From Candidatus Zixiibacteriota bacterium (lineage in GTDB: Bacteria; Zixibacteria; MSB-5A5; SM23-73-2), in contig JAUWYR010000041.1 in assembly GCA_030615745.1 (NCBI GenBank), positions 1 to 23,140 of the forward strand: DNA of 23,140 nucleotides, in the 5' to 3' direction. Made by a program: the position numbers and the translations under genes. The number at the start of each line of letters is the position of its first letter. Positions within the stretch are counted from its first letter, which is position 1. Shown here in pieces: positions 3,659-21,216 of the stretch. Below the pieces are notes generated by a model. That model saw only the letters and a program-made list of their open reading frames with translations, made no database searches and was not told where the DNA came from.

Positions 3659-3945
3659 AAGTAAAAGCGGTATTTAATTTAACGGCTTTTTCTCTCAGAA
3701 ATAGGTAGTATTTTTAATATAGAACAAGAGTTAAGACTCATTTAAATCCAATAACTGTGAGCTATGAATTTTAATTATTTATGTTTTTAAGGAGGTGATA
3801 TCCTAAAACTCTTTTTTGTTTTTTCTTCCACCAGTAAACATTAGAAGCAAAAGGAGGAGGTGATCTATTCAAGAATTTCTTATATTCAAATTTTTGGAAG
3901 TTTCACACCGGAGGGGGATCAACCTTAACTAAATAAGGAGACGTC

Positions 3946-5427: not shown

Positions 5428-5595
5428 CTGTATTTAGTCAAACCTTATATTGAACTTATGAGAATGGATCACAGGCGAAAAAAAAGACAAAGGATAAAAA
5501 GGGCAAATCGATTAGAATTCTGCTCTGTGCGGAGATGTTAGATGTGATAGATTTAGTTAAATATATCTTTGGCTATTCGTTCGATTTGAACTGCC

Positions 5596-5635
5596 AAAAC
5601 CCCAGCCCCTTTTTAGAGACTGGGGTTTTCTTTTG
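5596..5635 (+). terminator. Rho-independent terminator after the FG-GAP gene
   Basis: AAAACCCCAG (5596-5605) pairs with CTGGGGTTTT (5620-5629), loop 14 bases, followed by CTTTTG. It lies 168 bases after the stop codon and can work on both strands because the stem is flanked by A and T runs. Confidence 0.75.
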
Positions 5636-5692
5636 CGAGAGTTTTACGGATGGCTTTGATTTAAGAGCCTAAATTAAGGGCAGGAATCTCAA

Positions 5693-5736
5693 TAACCTCA
5701 GCTTCTGCTATCAAAAAAGTTCTAAATCGTCCACTA
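5693..5736 (+). repeat. Dispersed short repeat, family A, copy 1
   Basis: Contains GCTATCAAAAAAGTTCTAA and the flanks TAACCTCAGCTTCT and ATCGTCCACTA. Matches 6611-6656 and 12279-12320, and in part 8735-8760. It lies in a 575-base gap (5428-6002) that otherwise holds the terminator at 5596 and a promoter at 5860. No gene is visible in the gap. Confidence 0.75.
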
Positions 5737-5859
5737 AGCCCAGCCAGTGATTTTTCTATTTTCGATTTTGGTAGCGCCTAATTCATGTGGACGGCCGTTT
5801 ATTTTTCTTTCATTTGACATTTGTCATTCATTATCAAATATTTTTCATTATTTAAAAAC

Positions 5860-5887
5860 TTGACTTTTGGGGGAGAATAGATAAAAT
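5860..5887 (+). promoter_or_regulatory. Sigma-70-type promoter for the membrane protein gene
   Basis: TTGACT at 5860-5865, 16-base spacer, TAAAAT at 5882-5887. The gene at 6003 follows after about 110 bases of leader. Confidence 0.45.
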
Positions 5888-6002
5888 TAGACAAAGAAGT
5901 GAACCAAAATCGGAAAACGAGATCTTAAGGCTATAAGGGGAAAAACTGCTTACAAATAGGGAAAGGAATGTAAAAATAATAACCTTTTGAAAAGGAGAAA
6001 GG

Positions 6003-6593
6003 ATGGAGATTCTTTATGATGTTCTGAAATTTTTCCACGTTATGAACTTTGTGTTTATGTCTGTTCCATTGTTTAATCTCATCGTGGTCAATGAGCGAGC
6101 AAACTTGGGAGGATCTTTTAACTATTATGCTGATCGCTATATGGAGAACATTATCCGTCGGGGCGCAACCAGATGTTTCGTATTCCAATCCACGGTTGGG
6201 ATTTCCGGAGTTATGCTTTTGATTTTCGGCTCCTTAGGGATTGAGGCTCTTTGGACCAACTGGGTGGTGTTAGCTAAAACTCTTCTTTTATTTACTCTGA
6301 TGGGACTTTTATCCTATGTGCATTTCAGTCTCCAGCCTAAAATCGAATCCTTTTTAGCTGATCTGGGTCCCGAATCGGCTGTGTCCGATGGTTTCGCCGG
6401 TAAACTTAAACCTTATCGGGTCAGGAGGAAAAGGCTAGCAACTTTGTGCCTGTTTTTAGTGATCACCACTATTATTTTAGGGTTACAGGTTTATGAGACC
6501 TTCAGCCCAATCTTGACCATCATTCTCATTGGTTTGGCAGGTCTTTTTGCATTGAGAGTTAGCCGAACCCTTATTCGCTTTGGCTGGATTTAA
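6003..6593 (+). CDS. Integral membrane protein, unknown function
   Basis: A 196-residue protein with ATG start and AAAGGAGAAAG ribosome-binding site. It has about five hydrophobic segments: roughly residues 5-33, 57-80, 87-108, 142-163 and 167-188. Between the first two is a polar stretch with several basic residues (ADRYMENIIRRGATR), and before the fourth a basic loop (YRVRRKRLAT). I do not recognise a family with confidence; the architecture is compatible with small copper-resistance/DUF-type four- or five-helix membrane proteins, but no metal or heme ligands are conserved obviously (one histidine at residue 13 and one in the third helix could be heme ligands). It has its own promoter and stands alone between repeats. 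Confidence 0.7.
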   Translation: MEILYDVLKFFHVMNFVFMSVPLFNLIVVNERANLGGSFNYYADRYMENIIRRGATRCFVFQSTVGISGVMLLIFGSLGIEALWTNWVVLAKTLLLFTLMGLLSYVHFSLQPKIESFLADLGPESAVSDGFAGKLKPYRVRRKRLATLCLFLVITTIILGLQVYETFSPILTIILIGLAGLFALRVSRTLIRFGWI

Positions 6594-6610
6594 GAAGGTC
6601 GGAGATAAGA

Positions 6611-6656
6611 ATAGGATCGGCTTCTGCTATCAAAAAAGTTCTAAGATCGTGCACTA
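6611..6656 (+). repeat. Dispersed short repeat, family A, copy 2
   Basis: Begins 18 bases after the stop of the membrane protein gene. Shares GCTATCAAAAAAGTTCTAA with copies 1 and 3, then GATCGTGCACTA. The gap 6594-7099 (506 bases) also holds repeat B copy 2, a promoter and a leader hairpin; 6700-6930 shows nothing further that I can name. Confidence 0.75.
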
Positions 6657-6668
6657 CCCCCAGTTTTA

Positions 6669-6699
6669 TCCATATATATCAAGAAGTTAGAAATTACAC
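6669..6699 (+). repeat. Dispersed short repeat, family B, copy 2
   Basis: Core TCAAGAAGTTAGAAATTACA; 28 of 31 positions identical to 3555-3585. It lies 12 bases after a family A copy, so the two families may be parts of one larger mosaic element. Confidence 0.6.
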
Positions 6700-6937
6700 A
6701 CCAAGTTTAGCCAAAGCGAAATCCTTCTCATAAATGCTTAGCTCACTCTGAACTCAAACATCTCATATAACTCAACTTTCTTAATAAATGAGGACAAAAA
6801 GCTAAGGTAGTATAAAGCATTTTGAGATATATTTTTTTAACCAGAGCTGTCCTCTAAATCAGGTTATTTCATCCTTTAATTAAGGCATATATTATAAGTT
6901 CGCAACTTTTTCACAGGCAGAGGAGTGGTATTTGAAG

Positions 6938-6965
6938 TTGACAAATCCTGATTTTTGAGTATATT
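6938..6965 (+). promoter_or_regulatory. Sigma-70-type promoter for the M28 peptidase gene
   Basis: TTGACA at 6938-6943, 16-base spacer, TATATT at 6960-6965. The bases TTGACAAATC followed by a TGATTTTTG-like stretch are also seen at 10466, upstream of the other dockerin gene, suggesting a shared promoter type. Confidence 0.6.
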
Positions 6966-6987
6966 AAAATTAGATGTCTTGAGAAAA

Positions 6988-7026
6988 CCAGCTTTAAGAT
7001 CTGTTCTGATTTGAAAATAAAGCTGG
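6988..7026 (+). promoter_or_regulatory. Hairpin at the start of the peptidase leader
   Basis: CCAGCTTTA (6988-6996) and TAAAGCTGG (7018-7026) form a perfect 9-base stem just after the predicted transcription start, followed by CTTTGTCATCTTATT. Could stabilise the mRNA 5' end or act as an attenuator. Confidence 0.45.
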
Positions 7027-7099
7027 CTTTGTCATCTTATTCTGTCAACGTTTTAACGACAACGAAAGGACAAATAACCATCAACTCAGGAAGTGTTTT

Positions 7100-8641
7100 A
7101 TGTGTAAGAGAAGCTCAGCTTTGTTTTTTGCAGTGATGTTAGCCGTTTTAGCATTAGGGGGCAGTCAGCTTTTAGCCTCACCGGTTTTGATCAAACTACA
7201 CCTAAAAGATCTGTCCGATTATCAGAAAGCCAAGGCTTTGAATGTATTAGCTTACCACAGATTTGATAATCTATTCATAGCTGAATTTGAAAAATCGGAG
7301 CTTTTGGCTCTGGATGATGCGAGCTTGACCTATCAAATCATTGATGAAAAGCCCTGGATCGAAAGCTATTATGTGGTCTCAGAAAGCAAAAGATGTGAGG
7401 GGGTGGATTTATCCCGTTACGGCGAAATTCTTGTGCAAGAGGGAAATTTTTATTTTCTAAAGATCTCAGATCAGGGTGCTCGAGGTTTAGCTGAGAAGGG
7501 CTATCATATAGCAAAAGTCTTTCGTCATGCCATCCCTTTAAAATACAAGAAAGTGACCGAAGCGTTGCCCAAGGCTTTACTTTACGATCCCAGCATCGAC
7601 AGCCTCCTTTCTCTGATCTCAGAGGATTCCCTTTATGTCTGGGATTTACGTTTGCAGAATTTTCAGACCAGATATTCCTATTCCGATTCGATACATAGTG
7701 CTCGGCAGTGGCTTTTTGGCAAGTTGGTAGACTTCGGCATCGACTCGGTCTGGTTTCATCATTATTATTATGATTCTGATCAGTACAACGTAGTAGCAAG
7801 TGTGGTGGGAACGGCTCAGCCGGATAAAGTGATAGTGGTGGGTGGGCATTATGACTCGGTAGTATACGGAGGAGGAACGAATCCCTATGTTTGGGCACCA
7901 GGTGCGGATGATAACGGTTCAGGCACGGTTGCTACTTTAGAGATAGCAAGGATAATCGCCCAGAATCCTTTGCCGGTCACGGTGATCTTTGTCCCTTTTG
8001 CTCAAGAAGAGCAAGGGTTGATCGGAAGCTACTATTTCGCTGAATATCTTTATAATCAAGGAACCGACCTTCATCTGATGCTCAATGCTGATATGATCGG
8101 TCACAGCGTGGATGCGGATACGGACGTTGTAATCTACGCTGCTGCGAGTGCAATGGAGTTTGTCAACATCATGATGGATATGGCAAACAGCTATACCTAT
8201 TTGAGCCCATATTATGGAGGTCAGTCTGGAGGGAGCGATCACTATTCTTTTTATCAATGGGGATACGATGCGCTTTTTGCCTCGGAGGGTGACTTCTTTT
8301 ACAATGGCTGGCACAAGAATTACGATATCGTGGATAGCTTGGATTTCGACTACATGAAAGAGGTGGTGAAGATGGAGTTGGCTACCTTAATCACTGTGGC
8401 AAGATCCCTTGTACCACAATATGTCTGCGGGGATGTCAATGGAGATGAAATAATAGATTTAGCTGATGTGGTCTACTTAGCAAATTATTTACTCAAAAGC
8501 GGAGACGCACCACCAGACCCAATTTGTCGAGCTAATGCCAATGGGGATGCATTAATAAACCTGGGCGACGTTATATATTTAGCTAATTATAAGTTGAAAG
8601 GTGGACCTCCGCCCCATGATTGCGGAAACCACCAGCCTTAG
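7100..8641 (+). CDS. Secreted M28-family metallopeptidase with C-terminal dockerin-like module
   Basis: A 513-residue protein. ATG start with AGGAAG upstream; signal peptide at residues 4-27 (ends LLASP). A propeptide-like region follows (30-180). The M28 di-zinc aminopeptidase domain has the expected ligands: GGHYDS (His250), PGADDNGSG (Asp270), AQEEQG (catalytic Glu303, ligand Glu304), NADMIG (Asp331) and HKNYD (His405). Residues 443-513 are a duplicated dockerin-type calcium module, GDVNGD...LADVVYLANYLL and NANGD...LGDVIYLANYKL, ending in CGN. The family releases N-terminal amino acids or cleaves short peptides outside the cytoplasm. The same 71-residue tail ends the protein at 10581-12221, so both may attach to a common cohesin-like partner or the cell surface; none is in the window. 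Confidence 0.9.
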   Translation: MCKRSSALFFAVMLAVLALGGSQLLASPVLIKLHLKDLSDYQKAKALNVLAYHRFDNLFIAEFEKSELLALDDASLTYQIIDEKPWIESYYVVSESKRCEGVDLSRYGEILVQEGNFYFLKISDQGARGLAEKGYHIAKVFRHAIPLKYKKVTEALPKALLYDPSIDSLLSLISEDSLYVWDLRLQNFQTRYSYSDSIHSARQWLFGKLVDFGIDSVWFHHYYYDSDQYNVVASVVGTAQPDKVIVVGGHYDSVVYGGGTNPYVWAPGADDNGSGTVATLEIARIIAQNPLPVTVIFVPFAQEEQGLIGSYYFAEYLYNQGTDLHLMLNADMIGHSVDADTDVVIYAAASAMEFVNIMMDMANSYTYLSPYYGGQSGGSDHYSFYQWGYDALFASEGDFFYNGWHKNYDIVDSLDFDYMKEVVKMELATLITVARSLVPQYVCGDVNGDEIIDLADVVYLANYLLKSGDAPPDPICRANANGDALINLGDVIYLANYKLKGGPPPHDCGNHQP

Positions 8642-8703
8642 AGAGTAAACGGAAAACAGAAAACAGTAAACGGTAGAAGAAAAAAAATCTAATTAATGTT
8701 GGT

Positions 8704-8726
8704 GTCAGGAGCACGGGGCTCCTGAC
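8704..8726 (+). repeat. Palindromic hairpin repeat related to 18797 and 19622 copies
   Basis: GTCAGGAGC (8704-8712) and GCTCCTGAC (8718-8726), perfect 9-base stem, loop ACGGG. The arm GTCAGGAG/CTCCTGAC is shared with the hairpins at 18831-18850 and inside 19761-19807. It lies 62 bases after the peptidase stop. Just before it, 8650-8680 is a short imprecise repeat of GTAAACGG and AAAACAG. Confidence 0.6.
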
Positions 8727-8734
8727 CTACTTCT

Positions 8735-8760
8735 TTCTAAGATCGTGCAATTGGAGACTC
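8735..8760 (+). repeat. Dispersed short repeat, family A, partial copy
   Basis: TTCTAAGATCGTGCAATTGG followed by AGACTC aligns with the right half of copy 3 at 12306-12332 (TTCTAAAATCGTCCAGTTGG then GGGACTC). The left half, with the A-run, is missing, replaced at the boundary by the hairpin repeat at 8704-8726. Confidence 0.5.
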
Positions 8761-8822
8761 CCGAGGCGGATAGTGACGAGAGCCAGCTTGGGCTCGCGCT
8801 CAAGTGCAAGATAGCAATATAA

Positions 8823-8857
8823 GCGGGGCTTGTTACCTTCTGACAACATCGCCCCGC
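8823..8857. terminator. Hairpin between convergent genes, candidate bidirectional terminator
   Basis: GCGGGGC (8823-8829) pairs with GCCCCGC (8851-8857), with TTGT/ACAA extending the stem inside. It lies between the + strand peptidase gene and the end of the - strand Bor-like gene at 8901. No strong T run follows on either strand, so factor-independent termination is uncertain. Confidence 0.4.
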
Positions 8858-8900
8858 CCATACTGTTTTCTTGCATGAAGTTATCTGCCGTTGCGTATCC

Positions 8901-9197
8901 TTATTTTGTTACTGTGACTGTTCGCGACTGAACAGTAATCAAACTCACCGGGATACCAATGAGGAAGTCAATAGGTGATATTTCAGTTTTAATTTCATAA
9001 TCAGTAGCATCACCAGCTATAGCCTTAGTATCCACTTCGTTCAGTTTAACCAGTCCCCAGAGGATATACCACTGGCGTGCTTGTTGTATCTCATTTTTTT
9101 GGGGACCATTCCCAACAGTATGTATGTGGGCGGCACAGCTAAAAACAAAAAAGGCTATTAGAACAACGGCTAATATTACTGATACTTTCTTTGTCAT
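8901..9197 (-). CDS. Bor-like small lipoprotein
   Basis: A 98-residue protein with a lipoprotein signal: hydrophobic residues 6-20 and a lipobox ending FSC with cysteine 21. The mature part starts AAHIHTVGNGP and contains WYILWGLVKLNEVD, then TDYEIKTEISPIDFLIGIPVSLITVQSRTVTV. This arrangement (VGN-P, a tryptophan-rich W-GLV strand, a conserved T-x-x-S-x-x-DFLIG segment, a final beta strand) resembles the phage lambda Bor lipoprotein family, whose founder gives serum resistance; that role cannot be transferred here. ATG start with AAGGAGG 5 bases upstream. The upstream gene stops (TGA) immediately before this ATG, so the two are translationally coupled. Confidence 0.7.
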   Translation of the reverse strand: MTKKVSVILAVVLIAFFVFSCAAHIHTVGNGPQKNEIQQARQWYILWGLVKLNEVDTKAIAGDATDYEIKTEISPIDFLIGIPVSLITVQSRTVTVTK

Positions 9198-9917
9198 TCA
9201 ACCTCCTTTCTCTTTTTTTGTGTTTATCCCTTTTTCTTTGAGATTTTTTTCTTTATTTATCACCTCCTTTATATTTTTGTTTGAGTTTATACTCCCAATG
9301 GATGACTCTACTTTGCGAATTTCTGTATCGTAGATACCATTGGGAATAAAATAATCAATTTGATAGAAGTTATTATTGATTTCACAAAATAGTTTAAAGG
9401 CTACGATATCTTTGTTTATGATGCGGTATTGTATCGTATTATTCCCATTCAGGCTAAACTTACCTTTAGTGACATTTTCCGTTTGAAAATTTAGTTTTAA
9501 CGATTTCTCAAAATCTCTATTCAATAAATCAAATAAAGGGGTTTTGTTAACTACTTTTGAGACAACAGAAGAAGCACCTTGTTCTGATCTAAATATTTTC
9601 AGAAGTTCTAATCTGAGGAAGGATGATGTATCACTATTTATAACTTGTCTTGCAGCATTGAATGATTGAGCATCGACTTCAGGCCAATCTGACGGCATTT
9701 GTATTGAGAATGAGTTATCAATTGGAAGGGGCAACGAAAGTAAATCGGGGTTTACATTAAACTCGATGGAAGGGAAGTTACTATTTTCGTCTGGTTTGTT
9801 AGCGCAAGAGATTATAGTCAACAATAATATTTGAATGGTGACATATTTTAGGATGTTCTTTACTTTCTGAGTAAAAACAAATTTTAAAATTTTGTTATAA
9901 ATAGTATTTTTTAGCAT
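9198..9917 (-). CDS. Predicted lipoprotein, unknown function
   Basis: The frame is open back to 10043, but the first 42 residues have no good start or homologous appearance; the ATG at 9917 (LKNTIYNKILKF next), with AGAGAAG upstream, is chosen, giving about 239 residues. It has a long basic n-region, a hydrophobic segment and a lipobox LTIISC at about residues 33-38, so it should be an exported lipoprotein. The mature domain is mixed alpha/beta (for example IQMPSDWPEVD, then FSLNGNNTIQYRIINKDIVAFKLFCEINNNFYQIDYFIP), which recalls PsbP/DUF-type domains that start with a 'P-x-x-W' element, but no family is assigned. The C-terminal 40 residues are highly charged and lysine-rich. It is directly followed by the Bor-like gene. 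Confidence 0.65.
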   Translation of the reverse strand: MLKNTIYNKILKFVFTQKVKNILKYVTIQILLLTIISCANKPDENSNFPSIEFNVNPDLLSLPLPIDNSFSIQMPSDWPEVDAQSFNAARQVINSDTSSFLRLELLKIFRSEQGASSVVSKVVNKTPLFDLLNRDFEKSLKLNFQTENVTKGKFSLNGNNTIQYRIINKDIVAFKLFCEINNNFYQIDYFIPNGIYDTEIRKVESSIGSINSNKNIKEVINKEKNLKEKGINTKKEKGG

Positions 9918-14645: not shown

Positions 14646-15518
14646 TTACTCTTTAGGTTTTACCTCTAAGTTCACCACCCCTTTTTCCACCACCACCGCC
14701 TCCATCTTGGTGGTGGGTTTTAAATCTCTGGCAATCGCTCTATTCTGAGAATTCAATCCACCTTTCCTCTGTTGATCCAAAATGGAGGTATTGCCTGACC
14801 AATTTTTCATGTCCTCTTCTAAATTGGAGGGTTCGAGTTGAACAATCCATCCTTTTCCAAATGGGTCTTTGTTAATCAAGTCGGTATTGAAGTTGATTTC
14901 ATAGTTGGTTCTGATAACCCGACTCCGAATAGGAACGTAAAGCTTATGCACCTGCCTGTCCGAAGCTAAGATCCTGATACATAGCCTTCCCTGTTCGACC
15001 TCAGTCTCATCAAAGTGTAAAACGACATACAGGATATCTCCTATCCTTTCCCGAAACAGGTTATTCACTCCAATTTTTACCGTTCTATCATCTAACAATT
15101 TTGCCCAGATATAATTCTGGTAATGAAAAAGATCTTTTCTTTCAGTTTTTCTCTCTTCTAAGGCTTTTTTCAAAGCTTGAGTTAATACATCCGGGGTGAA
15201 AGGCTTAGGAACGTAGTTGGAAATACCTAATCTCATCGCTTTGACTGCTGATTCCACTGATGGATATCCAGTTATCATTATGGGAATAATGTCCGGATGA
15301 TTTTTCTTCACAATCCTCAAGACCTCCATTCCGTCAATATCCGGCATCTTCCAGTCGGCAATAACCACATCATATTTATCCTCTTCCACTTTTTTCAGAG
15401 CCTCTCTTCCGTTCAAAGCCATCTTAACATTATGTCCTTGTTGGCTTAATATCTTTTTACAGCTGTTGCACACTATCTGCTCATCGTCTACCACCAAGAC
15501 ATTTGCTCTATAGGACAT
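14646..15518 (-). CDS. Response regulator receiver fused to a GcvH-like domain lacking the lipoyl lysine
   Basis: 290 residues. Residues 4-122 are a receiver domain: acidic pair DD at 11-12, phosphoacceptor Asp55 (VVIADWKMPD), MITGYPS, Lys105 (YVPKPF). It is close to the receiver of the NtrC-type protein at 19819. Residues about 136-240 look like glycine cleavage H protein: DRTVKIGVNNLFRERIGDI, the strand TEVEQG, LYVP, then LINKDPFGKGWIVQLEPSNLEED. Aligned on LYxP, the lipoyl-lysine site (ESVKA in GcvH) reads ASDRQ, with Arg188 in place of lysine, so it cannot be lipoylated in the normal way. The tail 241-290 is of unknown type. First gene of the operon, downstream of a sigma-54 promoter; no DNA-binding domain is present, so it probably acts through protein contacts with the redox subunits. 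Confidence 0.85.
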   Translation of the reverse strand: MSYRANVLVVDDEQIVCNSCKKILSQQGHNVKMALNGREALKKVEEDKYDVVIADWKMPDIDGMEVLRIVKKNHPDIIPIMITGYPSVESAVKAMRLGISNYVPKPFTPDVLTQALKKALEERKTERKDLFHYQNYIWAKLLDDRTVKIGVNNLFRERIGDILYVVLHFDETEVEQGRLCIRILASDRQVHKLYVPIRSRVIRTNYEINFNTDLINKDPFGKGWIVQLEPSNLEEDMKNWSGNTSILDQQRKGGLNSQNRAIARDLKPTTKMEAVVVEKGVVNLEVKPKE

Positions 15519-15559
15519 TTTCTTTCACCTTCCTCTCTTTTCTTTCCAATACCTTAAAG

Positions 15560-15575
15560 AGCAATAGATGTGCCA
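15560..15575 (-). promoter_or_regulatory. Sigma-54 promoter of the receiver-GcvH/HybA/HybB operon
   Basis: On the - strand TGGCAC (15575-15570), five bases, TTGCT (15564-15560): a canonical -24/-12 element with GG and GC at the proper distance. Transcription would start near 15548, about 30 bases before the ATG at 15518. A sigma-54 activator is encoded at 19819-21216. Confidence 0.8.
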
Positions 15576-15692
15576 CATTGTGATTTTTTTCACAAAGTCT
15601 GGCAAAAATATCTGTTAACAATTTGAAATATAAGAACTTATAAATTATAAAGAAAAGTAAGGGCGGATATATTTTGAGAGGCTAAACAAACA

Positions 15693-15715
15693 GATGCATA
15701 TTAAAATTATGCATC
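15693..15715. promoter_or_regulatory. Inverted repeat, candidate enhancer for the sigma-54 activator
   Basis: GATGCATA (15693-15700), 7 bases, TATGCATC (15708-15715): perfect arms centred about 155 bases upstream of the predicted start, a usual distance for NtrC-type activator sites. A second inverted repeat, CGTATA-N7-TATACG, lies at 15785-15803, nearer the end of the neighbouring operon. The rest of 15519-15834 shows no gene. Confidence 0.5.
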
Positions 15716-15834
15716 AGTCTGAAGTGCTTTTATTGGTAAATAAGGACTTAGGTGGGATTTATGCTGTATAAGAAAAATATACGGCGTATACATTTCATAT
15801 ACGATTTTAGTCTATTGGGGTTCAAGTAGTTATG

Positions 15835-17055
15835 TTAGGACAGGGGTTGCACCCCTATCCTTTCTCTAAAACATAAAGCAGGGCAATTTTTACATTCAGA
15901 AAATGAACAATTAATACATTTTTTTAAAATATCATCAATTCCATATCGAAAATCTTCGAACTTTTTTGAAACCCATTTTTCAAGTAAGTCATCTTTAATA
16001 ATATTACCCATTTTTTTATTCCTATACATCTCACACGGATAAATATCACCATTACAAGATATCCATAATTTTGTTTTTAATGCACTACATATACCGTATG
16101 AATTCCTTAAATAATTGTTTTTGACTAAAAAATCTATGAAATCAATTGAAGGATAGAATTCAATATTATTTTTGTTTAAAAATAATTTTGGAAAAATGAA
16201 TGTTGATATTTCGAAATGGATTTTTTTTTGGGTAAGATAATCTATTGTCTTTTCTATTGATTTTTCATTGTGAGATGTAGTGACTATATGTAACGAGAAA
16301 GCACAATCCTCGTTCATTAATTTATCAATAGATTTCATAACTCGATTATAGGCACCTTTTTTTTGAACAAAACTATCGAATACTTTTTCATGTATACTAT
16401 GATAAGAAATCCTAAGGTCTGCGCTTCTAAAATTTTTATATAATCGAACAAAATCATCATCAATTAATGAACCGTTGGTGCAAATAGTAGTATCAAATCC
16501 TAAATCATCTAAAGATGATAAAAGGTGATTTAGTCCTTTGTAAAGAAAAGGCTCGCCTCCAGTAATTTCTATCCTAACAATTCCAAAATCTTTTAGTTTA
16601 TTTAATATATTTATCCACTTTTTGCTTGGTATAAATTCATTCTTGGCACCTTTCATATAACAAAATTTGCAATTAAAATTGCACATCGTAGTTATTTCTA
16701 ACTTTAGAGAAAAAGGTGAATTATTTTTATATAGAAGAGAATTGTATTTTTTTCCTTCTATACTTGTATATGAATATATGTCTTCAGGTAAATTACTCGA
16801 AAAGCAAACGTCATTAATCTCAATAAAATCATTTAACGCAAGAAAAAGTAAAAAATGTTGATTTATTTTTTCTTTAACTATGTCAATTTCAAATTTCTTT
16901 TTATAAATAATAGCATCTAAATAACATTTAGTTTCATTACAAATAGGATAAAACTTTTTGATATTATGACCATCTATATATAACAAATAATGTTTATCTT
17001 TAATTGTATGCGTAAACAGATGATTAGTTGCTCTTATTTGTATAGTGTTATTCAT
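15835..17055 (-). CDS. Radical SAM/SPASM peptide-modifying enzyme 1
   Basis: 406 residues. Radical SAM cluster C125-x3-C129-x2-C132 (CNFNCKFC), GGEP at 166-169, TNGSLI, then a SPASM domain with cysteines at 323, 334, 341, 380, 383, 388, 391 and 395, enough for two auxiliary [4Fe-4S] clusters. Residues 1-85 precede the barrel and may be a PqqD-like/RRE leader-peptide binding fold (short beta strands, then helix EIDIVKEKINQHFLLFLALNDFIEI), which is a guess from pattern. Such enzymes form thioether or carbon-carbon links in RiPP precursors. The ATG lies inside the end of the upstream enzyme gene (8-base overlap, ATGAATAA). Codon use is very AT-rich. The gene ends in a GGGG-TGCAA-CCCC hairpin at 15842-15854, which overlaps the last codons. 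Confidence 0.9.
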   Translation of the reverse strand: MNNTIQIRATNHLFTHTIKDKHYLLYIDGHNIKKFYPICNETKCYLDAIIYKKKFEIDIVKEKINQHFLLFLALNDFIEINDVCFSSNLPEDIYSYTSIEGKKYNSLLYKNNSPFSLKLEITTMCNFNCKFCYMKGAKNEFIPSKKWINILNKLKDFGIVRIEITGGEPFLYKGLNHLLSSLDDLGFDTTICTNGSLIDDDFVRLYKNFRSADLRISYHSIHEKVFDSFVQKKGAYNRVMKSIDKLMNEDCAFSLHIVTTSHNEKSIEKTIDYLTQKKIHFEISTFIFPKLFLNKNNIEFYPSIDFIDFLVKNNYLRNSYGICSALKTKLWISCNGDIYPCEMYRNKKMGNIIKDDLLEKWVSKKFEDFRYGIDDILKKCINCSFSECKNCPALCFRERIGVQPLS

Positions 17056-18139
17056 GAAAAAGAGCCCTTTTCCTTTTTGCTAGATAGCAATTATATTCAA
17101 CCCATTTATCTCTTTCTAATTTATTAATATACGCCTTCCCAGGACAATAAAAGCAATATTTACTTAAATCCCCACAGCTATTACAATTTGCAGGTTCTTT
17201 AAAAATTTCATCAACAATTCGAATAGTATATTTAGAATTCCAAATCTTTTGCAGAGATTCTTTTAATACGTTGCCTAATTTAATATCAATCAACCTGCAA
17301 GGAAATACATTTCCATATTGATCTATACTACATGAACTTCTCCCACCAATACATATTCTTTTTGTGGGTCTTTTATTTAATATATCTTCAAAAGAGTTTC
17401 TCAATAAAATTAAATCCGATCCGTTAAGTTGCAAGTTTTCATTAGAATAGTTTTTATGTGGAAGTATATCTATATCATAGGCAAAATCAACTCCCAATTT
17501 TTTGCTTAATTCAAATAAGCCTCTAATCGAATCATAATTTTTTTGAGTAATTGTCATTTTCAAGACTACTTTTTTAACATAATCCTTAATAATTTGCAGA
17601 TTTTTTATTGCCTTTTTAAATGAACCTTTTACTCCGACTAAAGAATCATGTAAATCTTCAATATGAGAGTGTATTGAAAAAACGACACAATAAATGTTTT
17701 CAAAATTAGTTTGTTTGAAAAAATCGTCGTCAAATAGTGTCCCATTAGTGAAGAATTCAATTATTAACCCTTGTTGCGTAGCATAGTTTATTATTTCTGA
17801 TAAATCATTTCTACATCCAATTTCACCACCATCCAACTGTAAGAAAAAAACACCAGCTTTTGATATCTCATTTATTATTTTTTTCATATCCAAAGTATTA
17901 ACTCCAAATGAATTGTAATCATCATACGCATAACAATGATAACATCTTAAATTACATGAACCAGTTAATACCAATCTTGCTCTAACAAGTTGTTTTCTAT
18001 TACATAACCATCGATAAGCCTCAATACCTTTAAGGATTTCTGAAGAATTATTCTGAAGTATAATTGGACCCCATATACCTGTAAAATACATCAAAACAAA
18101 ATCGTCAATTTTTTTATGATAAAGCAAAGATTCAGACAT
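17048..18139 (-). CDS. Radical SAM/SPASM peptide-modifying enzyme 2
   Basis: 363 residues. Radical SAM cluster C62-x3-C66-x2-C69 (CNLRCYHC), GGEI at 104-107 (variant of GGEP), FFTNGTLFD, VFSIHS. The C-terminal SPASM domain has cysteines at 263, 270, 281, 319, 322, 329, 332 and 351. It is distinct from enzyme 1 over most of its length apart from motifs, so the two are not a recent duplication. Its N-terminal 55 residues are too short for a full RRE. It is the first enzyme gene after the candidate precursor (101-base gap with a hairpin) and overlaps enzyme 1 by 8 bases. ATG start; ribosome-binding site weak (GAGGGA 10 bases upstream). AT-rich like enzyme 1. Confidence 0.9.
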   Translation of the reverse strand: MSESLLYHKKIDDFVLMYFTGIWGPIILQNNSSEILKGIEAYRWLCNRKQLVRARLVLTGSCNLRCYHCYAYDDYNSFGVNTLDMKKIINEISKAGVFFLQLDGGEIGCRNDLSEIINYATQQGLIIEFFTNGTLFDDDFFKQTNFENIYCVVFSIHSHIEDLHDSLVGVKGSFKKAIKNLQIIKDYVKKVVLKMTITQKNYDSIRGLFELSKKLGVDFAYDIDILPHKNYSNENLQLNGSDLILLRNSFEDILNKRPTKRICIGGRSSCSIDQYGNVFPCRLIDIKLGNVLKESLQKIWNSKYTIRIVDEIFKEPANCNSCGDLSKYCFYCPGKAYINKLERDKWVEYNCYLAKRKRALFHE

Positions 18140-18176
18140 CCTATTATTCCCTCAAAATAAATTAAGAATTGTATAA

Positions 18177-18213
18177 GGGACTCTTTCTCGGGGTCGGCTA
18201 CGAGAAGAGCCCC
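18177..18213 (-). promoter_or_regulatory. Hairpin between precursor and enzyme genes
   Basis: GGGACTCTTTCTCG (18177-18190) and CGAGAAGAGCCCC (18201-18213) form a stem of 12 pairs with one mismatch and one bulge, loop of 10. No T run follows on the - strand. In RiPP operons such intergenic hairpins commonly reduce read-through or protect the precursor mRNA, giving more precursor than enzyme. Confidence 0.65.
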
Positions 18214-18240
18214 AATGTTAATTATCTGTCAATAAGGTAA

Positions 18241-18420
18241 CTAGCATCCAGAAACACAAATGATAATCTCTTCCATTTCTTGACCGACTTCCTTTATGAT
18301 GGGAATTTTTCCTGCGATTAGCCCAACAGACAATTCTTTTCCACGGAGATTAATCCCTAAATTATCCAACACCTTAAGTTGATCATCAGTTAGCTTAATG
18401 CGTTCAGTTTTTTTTGGCAT
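18241..18420 (-). CDS. Candidate RiPP precursor peptide ending in CVSGC
   Basis: 59 residues from the ATG at 18420 (MPKKTERIKLTDDQLK). A longer frame reaches 18471, but AAAGGAGGTGATAAT lies directly before 18420 and is one of the strongest ribosome-binding sites in the window. Residues 1-50 are a soluble, helix-prone leader (TDDQLKVLDNLGINLRGK, then LSVGLIAGKIPIIKEVGQEM); the end is EEIIICVSGC with the only two cysteines of the peptide, at 55 and 59, the last being the C-terminal residue. A short leader-type protein with cysteines only in the final five positions next to two radical SAM/SPASM enzymes is the pattern of a sactipeptide/ranthipeptide-like or cofactor-type precursor. I do not recognise the family. 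No transporter or protease is adjacent. Confidence 0.75.
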   Translation of the reverse strand: MPKKTERIKLTDDQLKVLDNLGINLRGKELSVGLIAGKIPIIKEVGQEMEEIIICVSGC

Positions 18421-18455
18421 ATTATCACCTCCTTTCATTGCCGACCCATTTAAAA

Positions 18456-18484
18456 GCGACAATAGAAACATTAGTGTCTATCGC
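18456..18484 (-). promoter_or_regulatory. Leader hairpin of the RiPP operon
   Basis: On the - strand GCGATAGACAC...and TCTATTGTCGC form an imperfect stem followed by TTTT (18455-18452), 32 bases before the precursor start. It resembles a weak terminator/attenuator in the 5' leader. Confidence 0.4.
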
Positions 18485-18495
18485 CACTTTTTTAG

Positions 18496-18524
18496 ATAAA
18501 ATAGAATTACTATACGCCTAACAA
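18496..18524 (-). promoter_or_regulatory. Putative promoter of the RiPP operon
   Basis: TTGTTA (18524-18519), 17-base spacer, TTTTAT (18501-18496) on the - strand. Predicted start near 18489, just before the leader hairpin. Match to consensus is only fair. Confidence 0.35.
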
Positions 18525-18527
18525 TAA

Positions 18528-18596
18528 TTATACAGTCTGCATAAACGGGCAAAAGCAGACTGTCTCCTTCTGCATAAGAACCGTGAATAATCGCAT
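18528..18596 (-). CDS. Possible small ORF (22 residues)
   Basis: ATG at 18596 with AGGAGG six bases upstream (18607-18603), reading MRLFTVLMQKETVCFCPFMQ plus two residues and TAA. The start MRxFTVxxxK recalls the first strand of HicB-type antitoxins, so it could be the stub of a lost HicB gene; it may equally be a leader peptide or chance. The end overlaps the inverted repeat ACAGTCTGC/GCAGACTGT (18532-18540 and 18555-18563). Confidence 0.25.
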   Translation of the reverse strand: MRLFTVLMQKETVCFCPFMQTV

Positions 18597-18662
18597 TCAA
18601 AACCTCCTAAACCATCAAGAATCAATATCTTGTTGTTCGTCGTGGGCTGATGAACAGCCAGG

Positions 18663-18679
18663 TTATACAGTCTGTATAA
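18663..18679. repeat. 17-base palindrome TTATACAGTCTGTATAA
   Basis: Perfect arms TTATACAG/CTGTATAA around one central base. A near copy, TTATACAGTCTGCATAA, is at 18528-18544, 135 bases away. They lie between the integrase relic and the RiPP operon and could be operators or recombination-related sites. Confidence 0.5.
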
Positions 18680-18685
18680 ACCCGC

Positions 18686-18793
18686 TCAGAGCGCATCGAC
18701 GGGGCTACGCACGCCGTGGCCTCCTTTGTTCAGGACATGGGTGTAGATCATGGTCGTGCTGACATCTTTGTGTCCCAGCAGTTCTTGGATGGT
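18686..18793 (-). pseudogene. C-terminal relic of an integron-type tyrosine recombinase (IntI-like)
   Basis: On the - strand the frame from 18793 to a TGA at 18688-18686 reads [20 protein letters not shown] followed by [15 protein letters not shown]. This is the end of the catalytic domain of IntI-type integrases: LLGH is the box with the catalytic histidine, and the tyrosine in MIYTHV is the nucleophile; the GVRSPxDAL tail is characteristic of IntI. Only about 35 codons survive. The frame breaks exactly where the palindromic repeat at 18797 begins, so the gene was truncated by or beside that repeat. Non-functional. Confidence 0.85.
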
Positions 18794-18796
18794 TCC

Positions 18797-18858
18797 GTGT
18801 TGTGTCAGGTCCTAGACCTGACACGTCTGTCAGGAGTAGCTCCTGACAGAACAAGAAA
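18797..18858. repeat. Palindromic repeat, intact copy (X)
   Basis: 62 bases made of two hairpins: GTGTCAGGTC-CTAG-ACCTGACAC and CTGTCAGGAG-TAG-CTCCTGACAG, framed by GTGTT at the left and AACAAGAAA at the right. The same unit is at 19622-19807, interrupted by an insertion. In both places the right end lies 11-14 bases from the stop codon of a - strand gene, so on that strand the hairpins are immediately 3' of genes. Confidence 0.85.
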
Positions 18859-18872
18859 TGATTTGTTAGGTC

Positions 18873-19142
18873 TTATTTCTTTCTATAGACATCTCCTCTT
18901 GAGCCAATATGATCAACATATATTGTCTTCAATTTATGATCAATCCAAAAAATTACTCGAATGTCTCCAATTCTCATTCTATAATATCCCTTCCACTCTC
19001 CAGCCATTGACTTTACATCCACTTTATCCGTAACCCCATCTTCTAATTCTCTCAAAGATTGTTTAATGCGTTGCCTTTGAAATTCAGGGAGACTTTTTAA
19101 ATAACGAGCCGCTCGCTTGTGGACAATAACCTTATGTTTCAT
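18873..19142 (-). CDS. RelE/ParE-family toxin
   Basis: An 89-residue protein with the RelE superfamily fold signature: KVIVHKRAARYLKSLPEFQRQRI at the start, KSMAGEWKGYYRMRIGDIRVIF in the middle and YVDHIGSRGDVYRKK at the end. Family members cut mRNA on the ribosome (RelE type) or poison gyrase (ParE type). The basic residues K/R around YYRMRIGDIRVIF and the terminal Y fit the mRNA interferase branch, but the target is not proven. Its ATG overlaps the end of the antitoxin gene by 4 bases (ATGA). It lies next to an integrase relic and repeats, the usual setting for mobile toxin-antitoxin pairs. Confidence 0.92.
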   Translation of the reverse strand: MKHKVIVHKRAARYLKSLPEFQRQRIKQSLRELEDGVTDKVDVKSMAGEWKGYYRMRIGDIRVIFWIDHKLKTIYVDHIGSRGDVYRKK

Positions 19143-19339
19143 ATAGAATCCAGTTCTACGTATGCATCTTTTTTACCTTTTTCTCTATCTTTTCGTGCTT
19201 GCTTGAGATCTTCAATAGCCTTCTTATCAAGATCTAATCCTAACAGCTCTTCTATTTTTTTATACTCCTTCCAGGGAATAATCACTTCGGTTGGTTTGCC
19301 CTTTTCATCCACTATAATTTTTTTATGTAGCGTAAGCAT
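19139..19339 (-). CDS. RelB/Phd-like antitoxin
   Basis: A 66-residue protein from ATG 19339 (MLTLHKKIIVDEKGKP), chosen because GAGGTGAAG stands just before it; an in-frame ATG at 19372 would add 11 residues without a ribosome-binding site. The N-terminal part (IIVDEKGKPTEVIIPWKEYKKIEELL) forms the Phd/YefM-like beta-strand and helix used for dimerisation and DNA binding; the charged C-terminal part (AIEDLKQARKDREKGKKDAY) is the disordered toxin-binding segment. Gene order antitoxin-toxin with a 4-base overlap is typical. Confidence 0.85.
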   Translation of the reverse strand: MLTLHKKIIVDEKGKPTEVIIPWKEYKKIEELLGLDLDKKAIEDLKQARKDREKGKKDAYVELDSI

Positions 19340-19379
19340 AACTTCACCTCTTCTTTTTTTAATCATACCCAACTATTGA

Positions 19380-19398
19380 TTATATGGTTTCCGTATAA
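19380..19398. promoter_or_regulatory. Palindrome in the toxin-antitoxin leader, candidate autoregulatory operator
   Basis: TTATATGGTTTCCGTATAA, an imperfect palindrome between the predicted promoter and the antitoxin start. Antitoxin-toxin complexes normally repress from such sites. Outer arms resemble the TTATACAG palindromes at 18528 and 18663. Confidence 0.45.
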
Positions 19399-19426
19399 CA
19401 CTCCTTTAATATTTGATCATTAAATA

Positions 19427-19455
19427 AATTTATACTCAACACTCTCCAATGTCAA
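19427..19455 (-). promoter_or_regulatory. Sigma-70-type promoter of the toxin-antitoxin operon
   Basis: On the - strand TTGACA (19455-19450), 17-base spacer, TAAATT (19432-19427). Leader of about 80 bases to the antitoxin start at 19339. Confidence 0.65.
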
Positions 19456-19518
19456 GTTATTTTAACGAGATCTCTCTGAAAAAGTCAAACAGTGGAAAGT
19501 TATTCTGGAGTGTCAAGC

Positions 19519-19537
19519 CCCCCGCCATAGGCGGGGG
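19519..19537 (+). repeat. GC-rich hairpin
   Basis: CCCCCGCC-ATA-GGCGGGGG, perfect 8-base stem, followed on the + strand by ATTTTC. It is enclosed in a wider inverted pair GGAGTGT (19507-19513) and ACACTCC (19607-19613). A short hairpin GTTCAC-CTAAAA-GTGAAC lies at about 19591-19608. No gene in 19400-19818. Confidence 0.5.
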
Positions 19538-19621
19538 ATTTTCGACTTCAGCTTGACCAGAAACTTCTTGAGAGACAACGTGTTTTAACTGGTTCACCTA
19601 AAAGTGAACACTCCAATTTCT

Positions 19622-19807
19622 GTGTTGTGTCAAGTCCTAGTGCTTATCCCACAAAATGAACCTAAAATGTAGGGGAGACCCTTGTGGTCTCCCGCTGGTG
19701 GTTGGGAGGGGACAAGCCCCTCCCCTACAGAAGAATTTGCATTATTTAATTGGAATGGCACTAGACCTGACACATCTGTCAGGAGTAGCTCCTGACAGAA
19801 CAAGAAA
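19622..19807. repeat. Palindromic repeat, second copy (Y), split by an insertion
   Basis: 19622-19640 plus 19761-19807 equal the 62-base copy X with two to three substitutions, once the inserted element and one duplicated CTAG are removed. It begins 12 bases beyond the stop of the sigma-54 activator gene. Confidence 0.85.
19640..19761. mobile_element. 122-bp MITE, probably IS630/Tc1-type, inserted at CTAG
   Basis: Flanked by TA on both sides within CTAG (19637-19640 and 19761-19764), which is the known target and duplication of IS630-type transposases. Ends are GTGC...GCAC, with an imperfect inverted match continuing over about 23 bases. The interior is fully structured: an outer pair TGTAGGGGAG/CTCCCCTACA (19668-19677, 19720-19729) enclosing hairpins GGGAGACC/GGTCTCCC and GGGAGGGG/CCCCTCCC. 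No coding capacity. The empty site is preserved in copy X at 18797-18858. Confidence 0.75.
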
Positions 19808-19818
19808 ATGGTTTTAAC

Positions 19819-21216
19819 CTATTTCTCTATTCTTATTTTATATTTCCTCATCAAAGCCTGAAAATTTGATCTCTGCATCCCCACATCTCTGGCTGATCTG
19901 GTTATGTTCCAGTCGTTTCTGGTTAAGGCATCCAGAATGAATGATTTTTCAATACTTTCAACAGCAGATTCCCTCACCTTCTTTTTTGTTCCCTTTAACT
20001 CTTTTGAAGTTTTGGGGATAGGGGTATCAGGATGAGCTGTCTCAGCTTTGACTGCAAAGGGGAGGTGCTCAGTAGTGATAGTATCACCTTCAGCCATTAC
20101 AATAGCTCGCTCGATCACATTCTCCAGCTGCCTAACATTTCCGGGCCAACTATAGGCATTTAACATATTCATCGCATCGACTGAGATACTTTTGATATTC
20201 TTGTTCATCTCCTTAGCATATTTTCTAAAAAAATGATAAGCTAAAAGGGGAATGTCATCTTTTTTTTCCCTTAAAGGTGGTATAGTGATGCTGAACACAT
20301 TCAATCGGTAAAAAAGGTCCTCCCGGAATTGTTTCTCTTCCACCATTTTTTCCAAGTCTTTATTAGTGGCTACAATAAATCTTAAATTTACCTTTTTAGG
20401 ATTGACTCCCCCAACCGGGGTGAACTCCCTTTCCTGGATCACCCTCAAAAGTTTAGACTGAAAATTTTGGTTTATATCCCCAATCTCGTCTAAAAAAATG
20501 GATCCACCATCAGCTATCTCAAATAGTCCTGGTTTGGTCACTATTGCCCCGGTGAAGGACCCTTTAACATGACCGAAAAGCTCAGATTCCAAAAGTTCTT
20601 GAGCAAACACTCCGCAGTCGACCGGAACAAAGGGTTTTTGCTTTCTATGGCTATTGAAATGGATAGCTCGGGCGATGAGCTCTTTGCCTGTCCCGCTTTC
20701 CCCCCGAATTAGAACGGTGCTATCTGTTGGAGCAACTTTACGAACTAACTTATATACTTCCAGCATCTTGGGGCTATTGCCAATAATATTATCGAATCCA
20801 TATTTAGCCTCTAACTCTTTTCGCAGGTAGATATTCTCAAAAATTAGGCTTTTTTTTTCCAGAGCCTTTTCAATCACAATTAAAACTTCATCCGGGGTGA
20901 AAGGCTTGGGGATGTAATCAAAAGCTCCTAATTTCATTGCCTGGACCGCGGACTGGACTGTGGAGTAACCGGTGATCATAATCACTATGGTATCCGGGTA
21001 TTTTTCCTTGACCTTTTCCAGAACTTCCATCCCATCGATCCCCGGCATCTTCATATCAGTGATCACAATATCAAATGGCTCTTTTTCCAGAAGCTCAAAA
21101 GCTTCCTGACCGGAAAGGGCGGTAAAGACCTGATGCCCGCCACCTTTCAGTATCTTCCGACAACTCTTCAATACAATCTCCTCATCGTCCACCACCAATA
21201 TTTTAGCTTTAGTCAT
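19819..21216 (-). CDS. NtrC-family sigma-54-dependent response regulator
   Basis: 465 residues in three parts. Receiver 3-120 with Asp54 as phosphoacceptor and Lys104. AAA+ domain about 142-375: Walker A GESGTGKE at 172-179, GSFTGA at 219-224 (the sigma-54 contact loop, with Ser for the common Ala), Walker B IFLDEIGD, and the arginine-finger region FREDLFYRLNVF. C-terminal Fis-type helix-turn-helix about 421-462 (WNITRSARDVGMQRSNFQAL). It activates sigma-54 promoters after phosphorylation by the kinase encoded just upstream, whose stop codon overlaps this ATG (ATGA). Its most obvious local target is the promoter at 15560-15575, because that operon also starts with a closely similar receiver. 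Confidence 0.96.
   Translation of the reverse strand: MTKAKILVVDDEEIVLKSCRKILKGGGHQVFTALSGQEAFELLEKEPFDIVITDMKMPGIDGMEVLEKVKEKYPDTIVIMITGYSTVQSAVQAMKLGAFDYIPKPFTPDEVLIVIEKALEKKSLIFENIYLRKELEAKYGFDNIIGNSPKMLEVYKLVRKVAPTDSTVLIRGESGTGKELIARAIHFNSHRKQKPFVPVDCGVFAQELLESELFGHVKGSFTGAIVTKPGLFEIADGGSIFLDEIGDINQNFQSKLLRVIQEREFTPVGGVNPKKVNLRFIVATNKDLEKMVEEKQFREDLFYRLNVFSITIPPLREKKDDIPLLAYHFFRKYAKEMNKNIKSISVDAMNMLNAYSWPGNVRQLENVIERAIVMAEGDTITTEHLPFAVKAETAHPDTPIPKTSKELKGTKKKVRESAVESIEKSFILDALTRNDWNITRSARDVGMQRSNFQALMRKYKIRIEK

What the first reader, a model, noticed from the sequence alone, without database searches (positions are those of the whole stretch)
15835..18420. Putative RiPP operon with two different radical SAM/SPASM enzymes and a CVSGC precursor
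Seen: a 59-residue peptide gene with a strong ribosome-binding site, then two overlapping genes for radical SAM enzymes with eight SPASM-region cysteines each. Known: radical SAM/SPASM proteins beside a short Cys-ended peptide usually make thioether-type or cofactor-type RiPPs. Inferred: two enzymes acting in sequence on an unusually small core, with residues IIICVSGC. The combination of a two-cysteine C-terminal core with two non-paralogous SPASM enzymes, and no transporter, fits none of the families I know (SCIFF, PqqA, mycofactocin, sactibiotics).
Basis: partly seen in the sequence, partly recalled or inferred. Interest (0 to 1): 0.85.

Follow-up and report, generated by a model that had tools for sequence, protein, structure and literature searches.

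The report
Peptide-modifying operon in an integron slot
A tiny gene for a two-cysteine peptide and two radical enzymes that probably cross-link it form one compact operon, and it sits in the capture site of a decayed integron inside a 4-kb foreign insertion; it matters because I found no report of an integron carrying a whole peptide-natural-product pathway.

Summary
On the minus strand lie a 59-aa peptide gene ending IIICVSGC (18420-18241), with the only 10/10 Shine-Dalgarno match among 753 ATGs of the window, and two radical SAM/SPASM genes overlapping by 8 nt (18139-17048, 17055-15835). Neither enzyme reaches any named NCBIfam family; the peptide matches nothing. The enzymes' nearest relatives (about 30% identity) are peptide maturases beside short Cys peptides, and the second enzyme models onto SuiB over its full length, with a beta3-alpha3 N-terminus typical of a leader-binding (RRE) domain. 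An operon making a radical-SAM-modified peptide (RaS-RiPP) is the best reading; the bond formed is inferred.

The operon (28% GC against 41%) lies in a 4.0-kb insertion absent from the syntenic site of a relative. It begins at the GTTAGGC core of an integron attI, next to the tail of an integron integrase; homology between attI copies stops at that core. The last stop codon lies in TCCTAAC, 6/7 complementary to the core, but the rest of an attC is missing. So it looks like a three-gene RiPP cassette in a decayed integron. No homologous trio was found in roughly 1,650 genomes; the precursor remains an orphan.

The parts
18241..18420 (-). precursor peptide gene, 59 aa, C-terminal IIICVSGC
   Evidence: perfect Shine-Dalgarno
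18244..18267 (-). codons 52-59, presumed core IIICVSGC (Cys55, Cys59)
   Evidence: sequence; that this is the core is inferred
18425..18434 (-). Shine-Dalgarno AAGGAGGTGA of the precursor
18177..18213 (-). hairpin between precursor and enzyme 1, possible attenuator; weak (region z-score -1.34, no T-run)
17048..18139 (-). enzyme 1, radical SAM/SPASM, 363 aa
15835..17055 (-). enzyme 2, radical SAM/SPASM with N-terminal RRE-like domain, 406 aa
16822..17028 (-). RRE-like beta3-alpha3 domain of enzyme 2 (residues about 10-78)
   Evidence: AlphaFold secondary structure; full-length fit to SuiB and SkfB
18516..18522 (-). attI core site GTTAGGC; cassette would begin at 18521
   Evidence: homology between attI copies stops here
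18516..18685 (-). attI region with two near-palindromes TTATRCAGACTGTATAA (18528-18545, 18663-18680)
18686..18805 (-). C-terminal remnant (39 aa) of an integron integrase
   Evidence: 83% identical over 35 aa to an integrase of G108 whose C-terminal 227-aa frame scores above the TIGR02249 cut-off
15834..15840 (-). TCCTAAC, putative attC 1L half-site containing the stop codon of enzyme 2
   Evidence: 6/7 complementary to GTTAGGC and the only such match in the operon
15817..19818 (.). about 4.0-kb insertion relative to the syntenic site of G107; AATAG at both edges
18873..19372 (-). RelB-like antitoxin and RelE/ParE-like toxin genes inside the insertion

Best explanation
The three genes are an RaS-RiPP operon. 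The peptide is made in excess (very strong ribosome-binding site), its roughly 50-residue N-terminal leader is held by the RRE-like domain of enzyme 2, and the two radical SAM/SPASM enzymes use SAM-derived radicals to modify the short C-terminal core around Cys55 and Cys59, most likely making thioether cross-links to neighbouring residues, either one each or as a joint complex. A host protease and exporter would finish the product, since none is encoded here. The operon came by horizontal transfer as one gene cassette: its first base follows the attI core of an integron, its last stop codon lies in what looks like the first half-site of its attC, and the integron has since lost most of its integrase and the rest of that attC. 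Shown: the genes, domains, attI junction, foreign composition and the insertion. Inferred: precursor role, thioether chemistry, integrase-mediated capture.
For: Genes and strong Shine-Dalgarno. Both enzymes radical SAM + SPASM. Enzyme 2 fits SuiB with bound precursor over residues 6-406 (Z 26.9, rmsd 5.1, 359 aligned) and SkfB (Z 25.6), and its first 78 residues are predicted beta-beta-beta-alpha-alpha-alpha. Enzyme 1 matches SuiB, SkfB and CteB. Nearest relatives of enzyme 1, 29-33% identical, stand beside short peptides with Cys: L114 ...SCNRCATGPAQIC, L115 ...CQMSSPCSPIRHNC, L194 ...TCCLSGC..., L197 ...TCCKSGAC.... attI: the window, contig C54 of the same genome, G103 and G108 share the region up to GTTAGRC; identity to C54 and G103 is 0.77 and 0.72 over 47 nt up to and including the core, and 0.33 and 0.28 over the 60 nt after it. 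C54 is a real integron: integrase remnant, attI, one ORF, then a 133-nt attC with GCCTAAC and GTTGGGC ends and a folding stem. G108 carries an integrase frame above the TIGR02249 cut-off. Insertion: in G107 the flanking genes are 294 bp apart, in the window 4.3 kb. GC 28% against 41%. Absent from the other 131 genomes of the phylum, also from the same-genus genome.
Against: No second copy of the peptide beside related enzymes was found, so conservation of the core is untested. No complete attC follows the operon: only a 7-nt half-site with one mismatch, whose first base breaks the RYYYAAC rule. Three genes in one cassette is unusual ('generally a single gene', PMC8876359). The modification chemistry cannot be read from sequence; both enzymes are only 15-22% identical to solved maturases.
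Confidence: 0.68

Rival explanations
1. The operon is a RaS-RiPP operon but not an integron cassette: it was brought in or left beside an old attI by another insertion, and the GTTAGGC and TCCTAAC boundaries are coincidence.
For: No full attC after the operon; the insertion has AATAG at both edges, which could be a 5-bp target duplication of a transposon, and contains 47-bp dispersed repeats and a toxin-antitoxin pair.
Against: Homology among attI copies stops at the core in every copy compared, and one of these copies has a proper cassette and attC. TCCTAAC is the only match within one mismatch of GCCTAAC in the operon on that strand and lies on the last stop codon. Transposition may have moved the whole decayed integron later; the two are compatible.
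Confidence: 0.22
2. The enzymes do not make thioethers but another radical modification: epimerisation, a C-C or C-O bond, or decarboxylation, with the cysteines left free or as a disulfide.
For: Radical SAM/SPASM maturases do all of these; SuiB (C-C bond) is the best structural match, EpeE (epimerase) also matches; enzyme 1 scores best on AhbD and NirJ models, though far below cut-off.
Against: The core has no Lys, Trp or Tyr; it has Ile, Val, Ser, Gly and two Cys. Relatives' peptides are Cys-containing.
Confidence: 0.3
3. The product is a small redox or metal cofactor, as in PQQ or mycofactocin, rather than a secreted peptide.
For: Tiny C-terminal core, no transporter.
Against: Carried by one genome of 132 in the phylum and on a mobile stretch; no dehydrogenase or partner enzyme nearby; below cut-off for MftC and PqqE.
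Confidence: 0.08
4. The 59-aa ORF is not the substrate but an unrelated small protein or a chance ORF.
For: No homologue found anywhere searched.
Against: Best ribosome-binding site of the window, first in the operon, leader-like N-terminus and Cys-rich end; codon-position GC is gene-like (0.50, 0.28, 0.33).
Confidence: 0.06

Closest known systems
Two-enzyme sactipeptide systems: thuricin CD (TrnC/TrnD; PMC12093266), ruminococcin C (RumMC1/RumMC2; PMC8188230)
   Same: Two radical SAM/SPASM maturases for Cys-containing precursors; an RRE is important for TrnC/TrnD.
   Different: Those cores bear several thioethers; here the core has two cysteines at the very end. Whether thioethers form here is unknown; no transporter, and only one enzyme here has a recognisable RRE.
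SuiB and SkfB maturases (PDB 5v1t, 6efn)
   Same: Enzyme 2 aligns over its full length including the N-terminal RRE domain.
   Different: 19-21% identity; neither system has a second radical SAM/SPASM enzyme as far as I know; peptide unrelated.
Radical SAM clusters of Omnitrophota and Nitrospirota (loci L112, L114, L115, L117, L194, L197)
   Same: Closest relatives of enzyme 1, beside short Cys peptides; L194 has TCCLSGC.
   Different: They have a separate PqqD-like gene and kinase-like gene, mostly one enzyme per peptide, and peptides with a different leader and residues after the Cys motif.
PqqD - radical SAM - 40-aa peptide - radical SAM - ABC transporter of a Macrococcoides bohemicum plasmid (NZ_CP079985)
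   Same: Two enzymes and a short peptide in one operon; its second enzyme is 30% identical to enzyme 1 and is the best plasmid match of enzyme 2 by bit score among the rows listed.
   Different: Has a PqqD gene and transporter; peptide MKKEFKKPTIIVKPTDNVIMANKSAQCSGSSSHIIIKKSE is unlike this one.
Integron gene cassettes
   Same: Begins at the attI GTTRRRY core beside an integron integrase tail; stop codon inside a half-site.
   Different: Three genes and 2.7 kb instead of usually one gene; attC truncated; integrase decayed. No cassette with a radical SAM RiPP pathway was found in the paper library.

Membership tests
RaS-RiPP (radical SAM-modified ribosomal peptide) | short precursor gene beside a radical SAM/SPASM maturase | tested here: met
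RaS-RiPP (radical SAM-modified ribosomal peptide) | leader-binding RRE domain | tested here: met
   beta3-alpha3 N-terminus of enzyme 2, pLDDT about 57-79, fits SuiB and SkfB from residues 6-10; no Pfam match, so it rests on the model
RaS-RiPP (radical SAM-modified ribosomal peptide) | precursor covalently modified by the enzymes | not testable with these tools
   needs co-expression and mass spectrometry
Sactipeptide / ranthipeptide | Cys sulfur linked to carbon of another core residue | not testable with these tools
   only the presence of Cys55 and Cys59 is shown
SCIFF, PQQ, mycofactocin, GeoRSP, SynChlorMet, AlbA, SkfB, StsB families of NCBIfam | enzyme score above the curated cut-off | tested here: not met
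   best scores 122.5 bits (AhbD, cut-off 500) and 93.2/89.2 (GeoRSP, cut-off 400); mycofactocin 90.2 of 265, PqqE 70.7 of 381, SkfB 67.3/74.6 of 300, ScmE 80.6 of 400. SCIFF maturase not among the listed best 25
Known RiPP precursor families of NCBIfam or Pfam | precursor matches a model | tested here: not met
   0 families at E up to 1
Viperin (pVip) defence proteins | viperin-like enzyme over the whole domain | tested here: not met
   partial hits to the radical SAM core (1.7e-23 for enzyme 2, 2e-14 for enzyme 1); the SPASM domain and the RRE-like domain lie outside viperin; NCBIfam viperin 67.8 bits, cut-off 180
Integron gene cassette | 5' end at the GTTRRRY core of attI | tested here: met
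Integron gene cassette | complete attC at the 3' end | tested here: not met
   only TCCTAAC at 15840-15834, then host sequence from about 15816
Integron gene cassette | integron integrase gene beside attI | tested here: inconclusive
   only the last 39 aa remain here; a frame above the TIGR02249 cut-off lies beside the same attI in G108

The most novel reading that the evidence does not exclude
A complete RiPP pathway (new precursor family plus two maturases) travels as a single integron gene cassette, so that integrons can trade ready-made peptide natural products between distant bacteria, with protease and exporter supplied by the new host.
Probability: 0.45. Interest if true: 0.66.

Novelty: new variant of a known kind. 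Interest (0 to 1): 0.52.

Why it matters
If the peptide is modified, it is a minimal RiPP system (one peptide, two enzymes, two cysteines) useful for asking why a precursor needs two SPASM enzymes. If the cassette reading is right, integrons, known for single resistance and accessory genes, also move whole biosynthetic operons; that would be a route for the patchy spread of RiPP clusters and a place to look for new ones.

Tried and rejected
Single-sequence scans of genome contigs and viral contigs with enzyme 1 found no relative. I then steered the pattern choice of the search for related loci with alignments containing made-up variant rows (A3-A6; only the first row was real and the reported confirmation used it). 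Precursor: only chance-level matches in the phylum (best E 0.068 outside its own genome), none at E 0.05 in 22 genomes holding relatives, none in plasmids or phages at E 1. A small-ORF scan for Cys-ended peptides near 80 loci gave several plausible precursors (for example in L151 and L167) but none like this one. Strict attC search (RYYYAAC...GTTRRRY, 45-160 nt) over 15300-19900 found nothing. The hairpin between precursor and enzyme 1 is no better than many shuffles. Rfam: one sub-threshold hit with E 0.38, taken as chance. Viperin-type defence considered and dropped. Paper searches for integrons with radical SAM or RiPP cargo gave nothing relevant. Absence from the named families was tested only through NCBIfam, Pfam and PADLOC.

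Full report
The finding checks out as a sequence observation. On the minus strand the window holds a 59-codon gene (18420-18241), then two genes of 363 and 406 codons (18139-17048 and 17055-15835), the last two overlapping by 8 nt. The small gene has AAGGAGGTGA before its ATG, the only ten-base Shine-Dalgarno match among the 753 ATGs on both strands. Both large proteins have a radical SAM core and a SPASM domain. The peptide ends EEIIICVSGC.

Family membership. No NCBIfam or Pfam model matches the peptide even at E = 1. Enzyme 1 scores best on heme b synthase AhbD (122.5 bits, cut-off 500), enzyme 2 on GeoRSP (89.2 bits, cut-off 400); none of the listed equivalogs is near its cut-off. Viperin models hit only the shared core.

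Function. AlphaFold models built on alignments of fetched relatives reach mean pLDDT 81.9 (enzyme 1) and 79.2 (enzyme 2). Enzyme 2 fits SuiB with bound precursor over residues 6-406 (Z 26.9, rmsd 5.1, 359 aligned, 21% identity) and SkfB (Z 25.6); its N-terminus is predicted as three strands and three helices, the arrangement of RiPP recognition elements (from my own knowledge of PqqD and SuiB). Enzyme 1 fits SuiB, SkfB and CteB and lacks such a domain; its first 30 residues are of low confidence. The simplest reading is that enzyme 2 supplies leader binding for both. The closest relatives of enzyme 1 (29-33% identity) come from Omnitrophota, Nitrospirota and a Clostridium relative; in the Omnitrophota and Nitrospirota loci they stand beside PqqD-like genes and short Cys peptides, one of which (L194) contains TCCLSGC. 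A Macrococcoides plasmid has peptide, PqqD, two enzymes and an ABC transporter together. None of these peptides resembles the one here beyond its cysteines. Thioether formation is therefore an inference from the kind of enzyme and from two cysteines in a short core without Lys, Trp or Tyr; epimerisation or another bond is not excluded. Whether the enzymes act in order or as a complex is open; in thuricin CD they act as a complex (PMC12093266).

Distribution. Enzyme 1 (E 1e-25), enzyme 2 (E 1e-20) and the peptide occur in none of the other 131 genomes held for the phylum, one of them of the same genus (the peptide search returned only chance-level matches). In samples of 375, 374, 385 and 388 genomes from four other phyla the best matches to enzyme 1 are 29-33% identical, that is, not orthologues of the trio. 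So 'orphan' means not found so far.

Context. The operon has 28% GC, the rest of the window 41%. In G107, of the same order, the genes that flank it here are neighbours: histidine kinase, NtrC-type regulator, response regulator, Fe-S protein and NrfD-like protein, with 294 bp between NtrC and the next regulator. In the window homology to that site stops at 19819 and resumes at about 15816, so roughly 4.0 kb are inserted; AATAG stands at both edges and once in the empty site, possibly a target duplication.

The insertion, read in gene direction, holds a 47-bp dispersed repeat, a RelB/ParE-like pair, a second copy of the repeat, the last 39 residues of a tyrosine recombinase, about 165 nt, and then the operon. 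The recombinase tail is 83% identical over 35 residues to a frame in G108 that scores 361.9 bits on TIGR02249, integron integrase (cut-off 265). After the integrase stop come two near-palindromes and GTTAGGC. The same arrangement occurs on contig C54 of this genome, and parts of it in G103 and G108. Identity to C54 and G103 is 77 and 72% over the 47 nt ending with the core and 33 and 28% over the next 60 nt. Integrase recombination cuts between the first two bases of GTTRRRY (PMC8876359), so this is where a captured cassette should begin. On C54 the core is followed by one 185-codon ORF and then a 133-nt attC with complementary ends GCCTAAC and GTTGGGC and a stable stem, which makes that locus a true integron and validates the attI. 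In the window the stop codon of enzyme 2 lies in TCCTAAC (15840-15834), 6 of 7 bases complementary to GTTAGGC and the only such match in the operon. The remainder of the attC is gone; host sequence follows within about 20 nt. The 2.7 kb between the two sites are filled by the three genes.

Verdict. A RaS-RiPP operon of a new precursor type is likely (about 0.85 on its own); that it entered as an integron cassette is likely but unproven for want of a full attC (about 0.7); thioether chemistry is the leading guess (about 0.5). I found no paper describing an integron cassette with a radical SAM or RiPP pathway, in an open-access library only. The chemistry is of a known kind; the vehicle and the two-enzyme, two-cysteine minimal layout make it a new variant.

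Noticed in passing
window 18812-18858 and 19761-19807: 47-bp direct repeats (98% identical) with the palindrome TCTGTCAGGAGTAGCTCCTGACAGA flank the toxin-antitoxin pair; related copies are scattered through this genome and others of the order, a dispersed repeat family of unknown nature.
   Followed up: partly
G000 contig C54:19084-20249 (locus L226 7084-8250): A second integron remnant in the same genome: integrase tail, attI, one 185-aa ORF of unknown family, full attC.
   Followed up: partly
L024:4688-8764 (Macrococcoides bohemicum plasmid NZ_CP079985): PqqD, radical SAM, 40-aa peptide with a single Cys, second radical SAM, ABC transporter: a two-enzyme RaS-RiPP-like cluster on a plasmid.
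   Followed up: no
L112 (Nitrospirae MAG PEUB01000031) 3900-9466: Two RiPP-like clusters side by side, one with a peptide of GGGGQ repeats after ...ALACGG, the other with a four-Cys 59-aa peptide.
   Followed up: no
window 15817 / 19818: AATAG at both edges of the insertion, as a 5-bp target duplication would give, but no transposase inside.
   Followed up: partly
window 3946-5427: 493-aa protein of near-identical FG-GAP-like repeats with an IPTL-type C-terminal signal; the opposite strand is also open for 290 codons because of the repeats.
   Followed up: no
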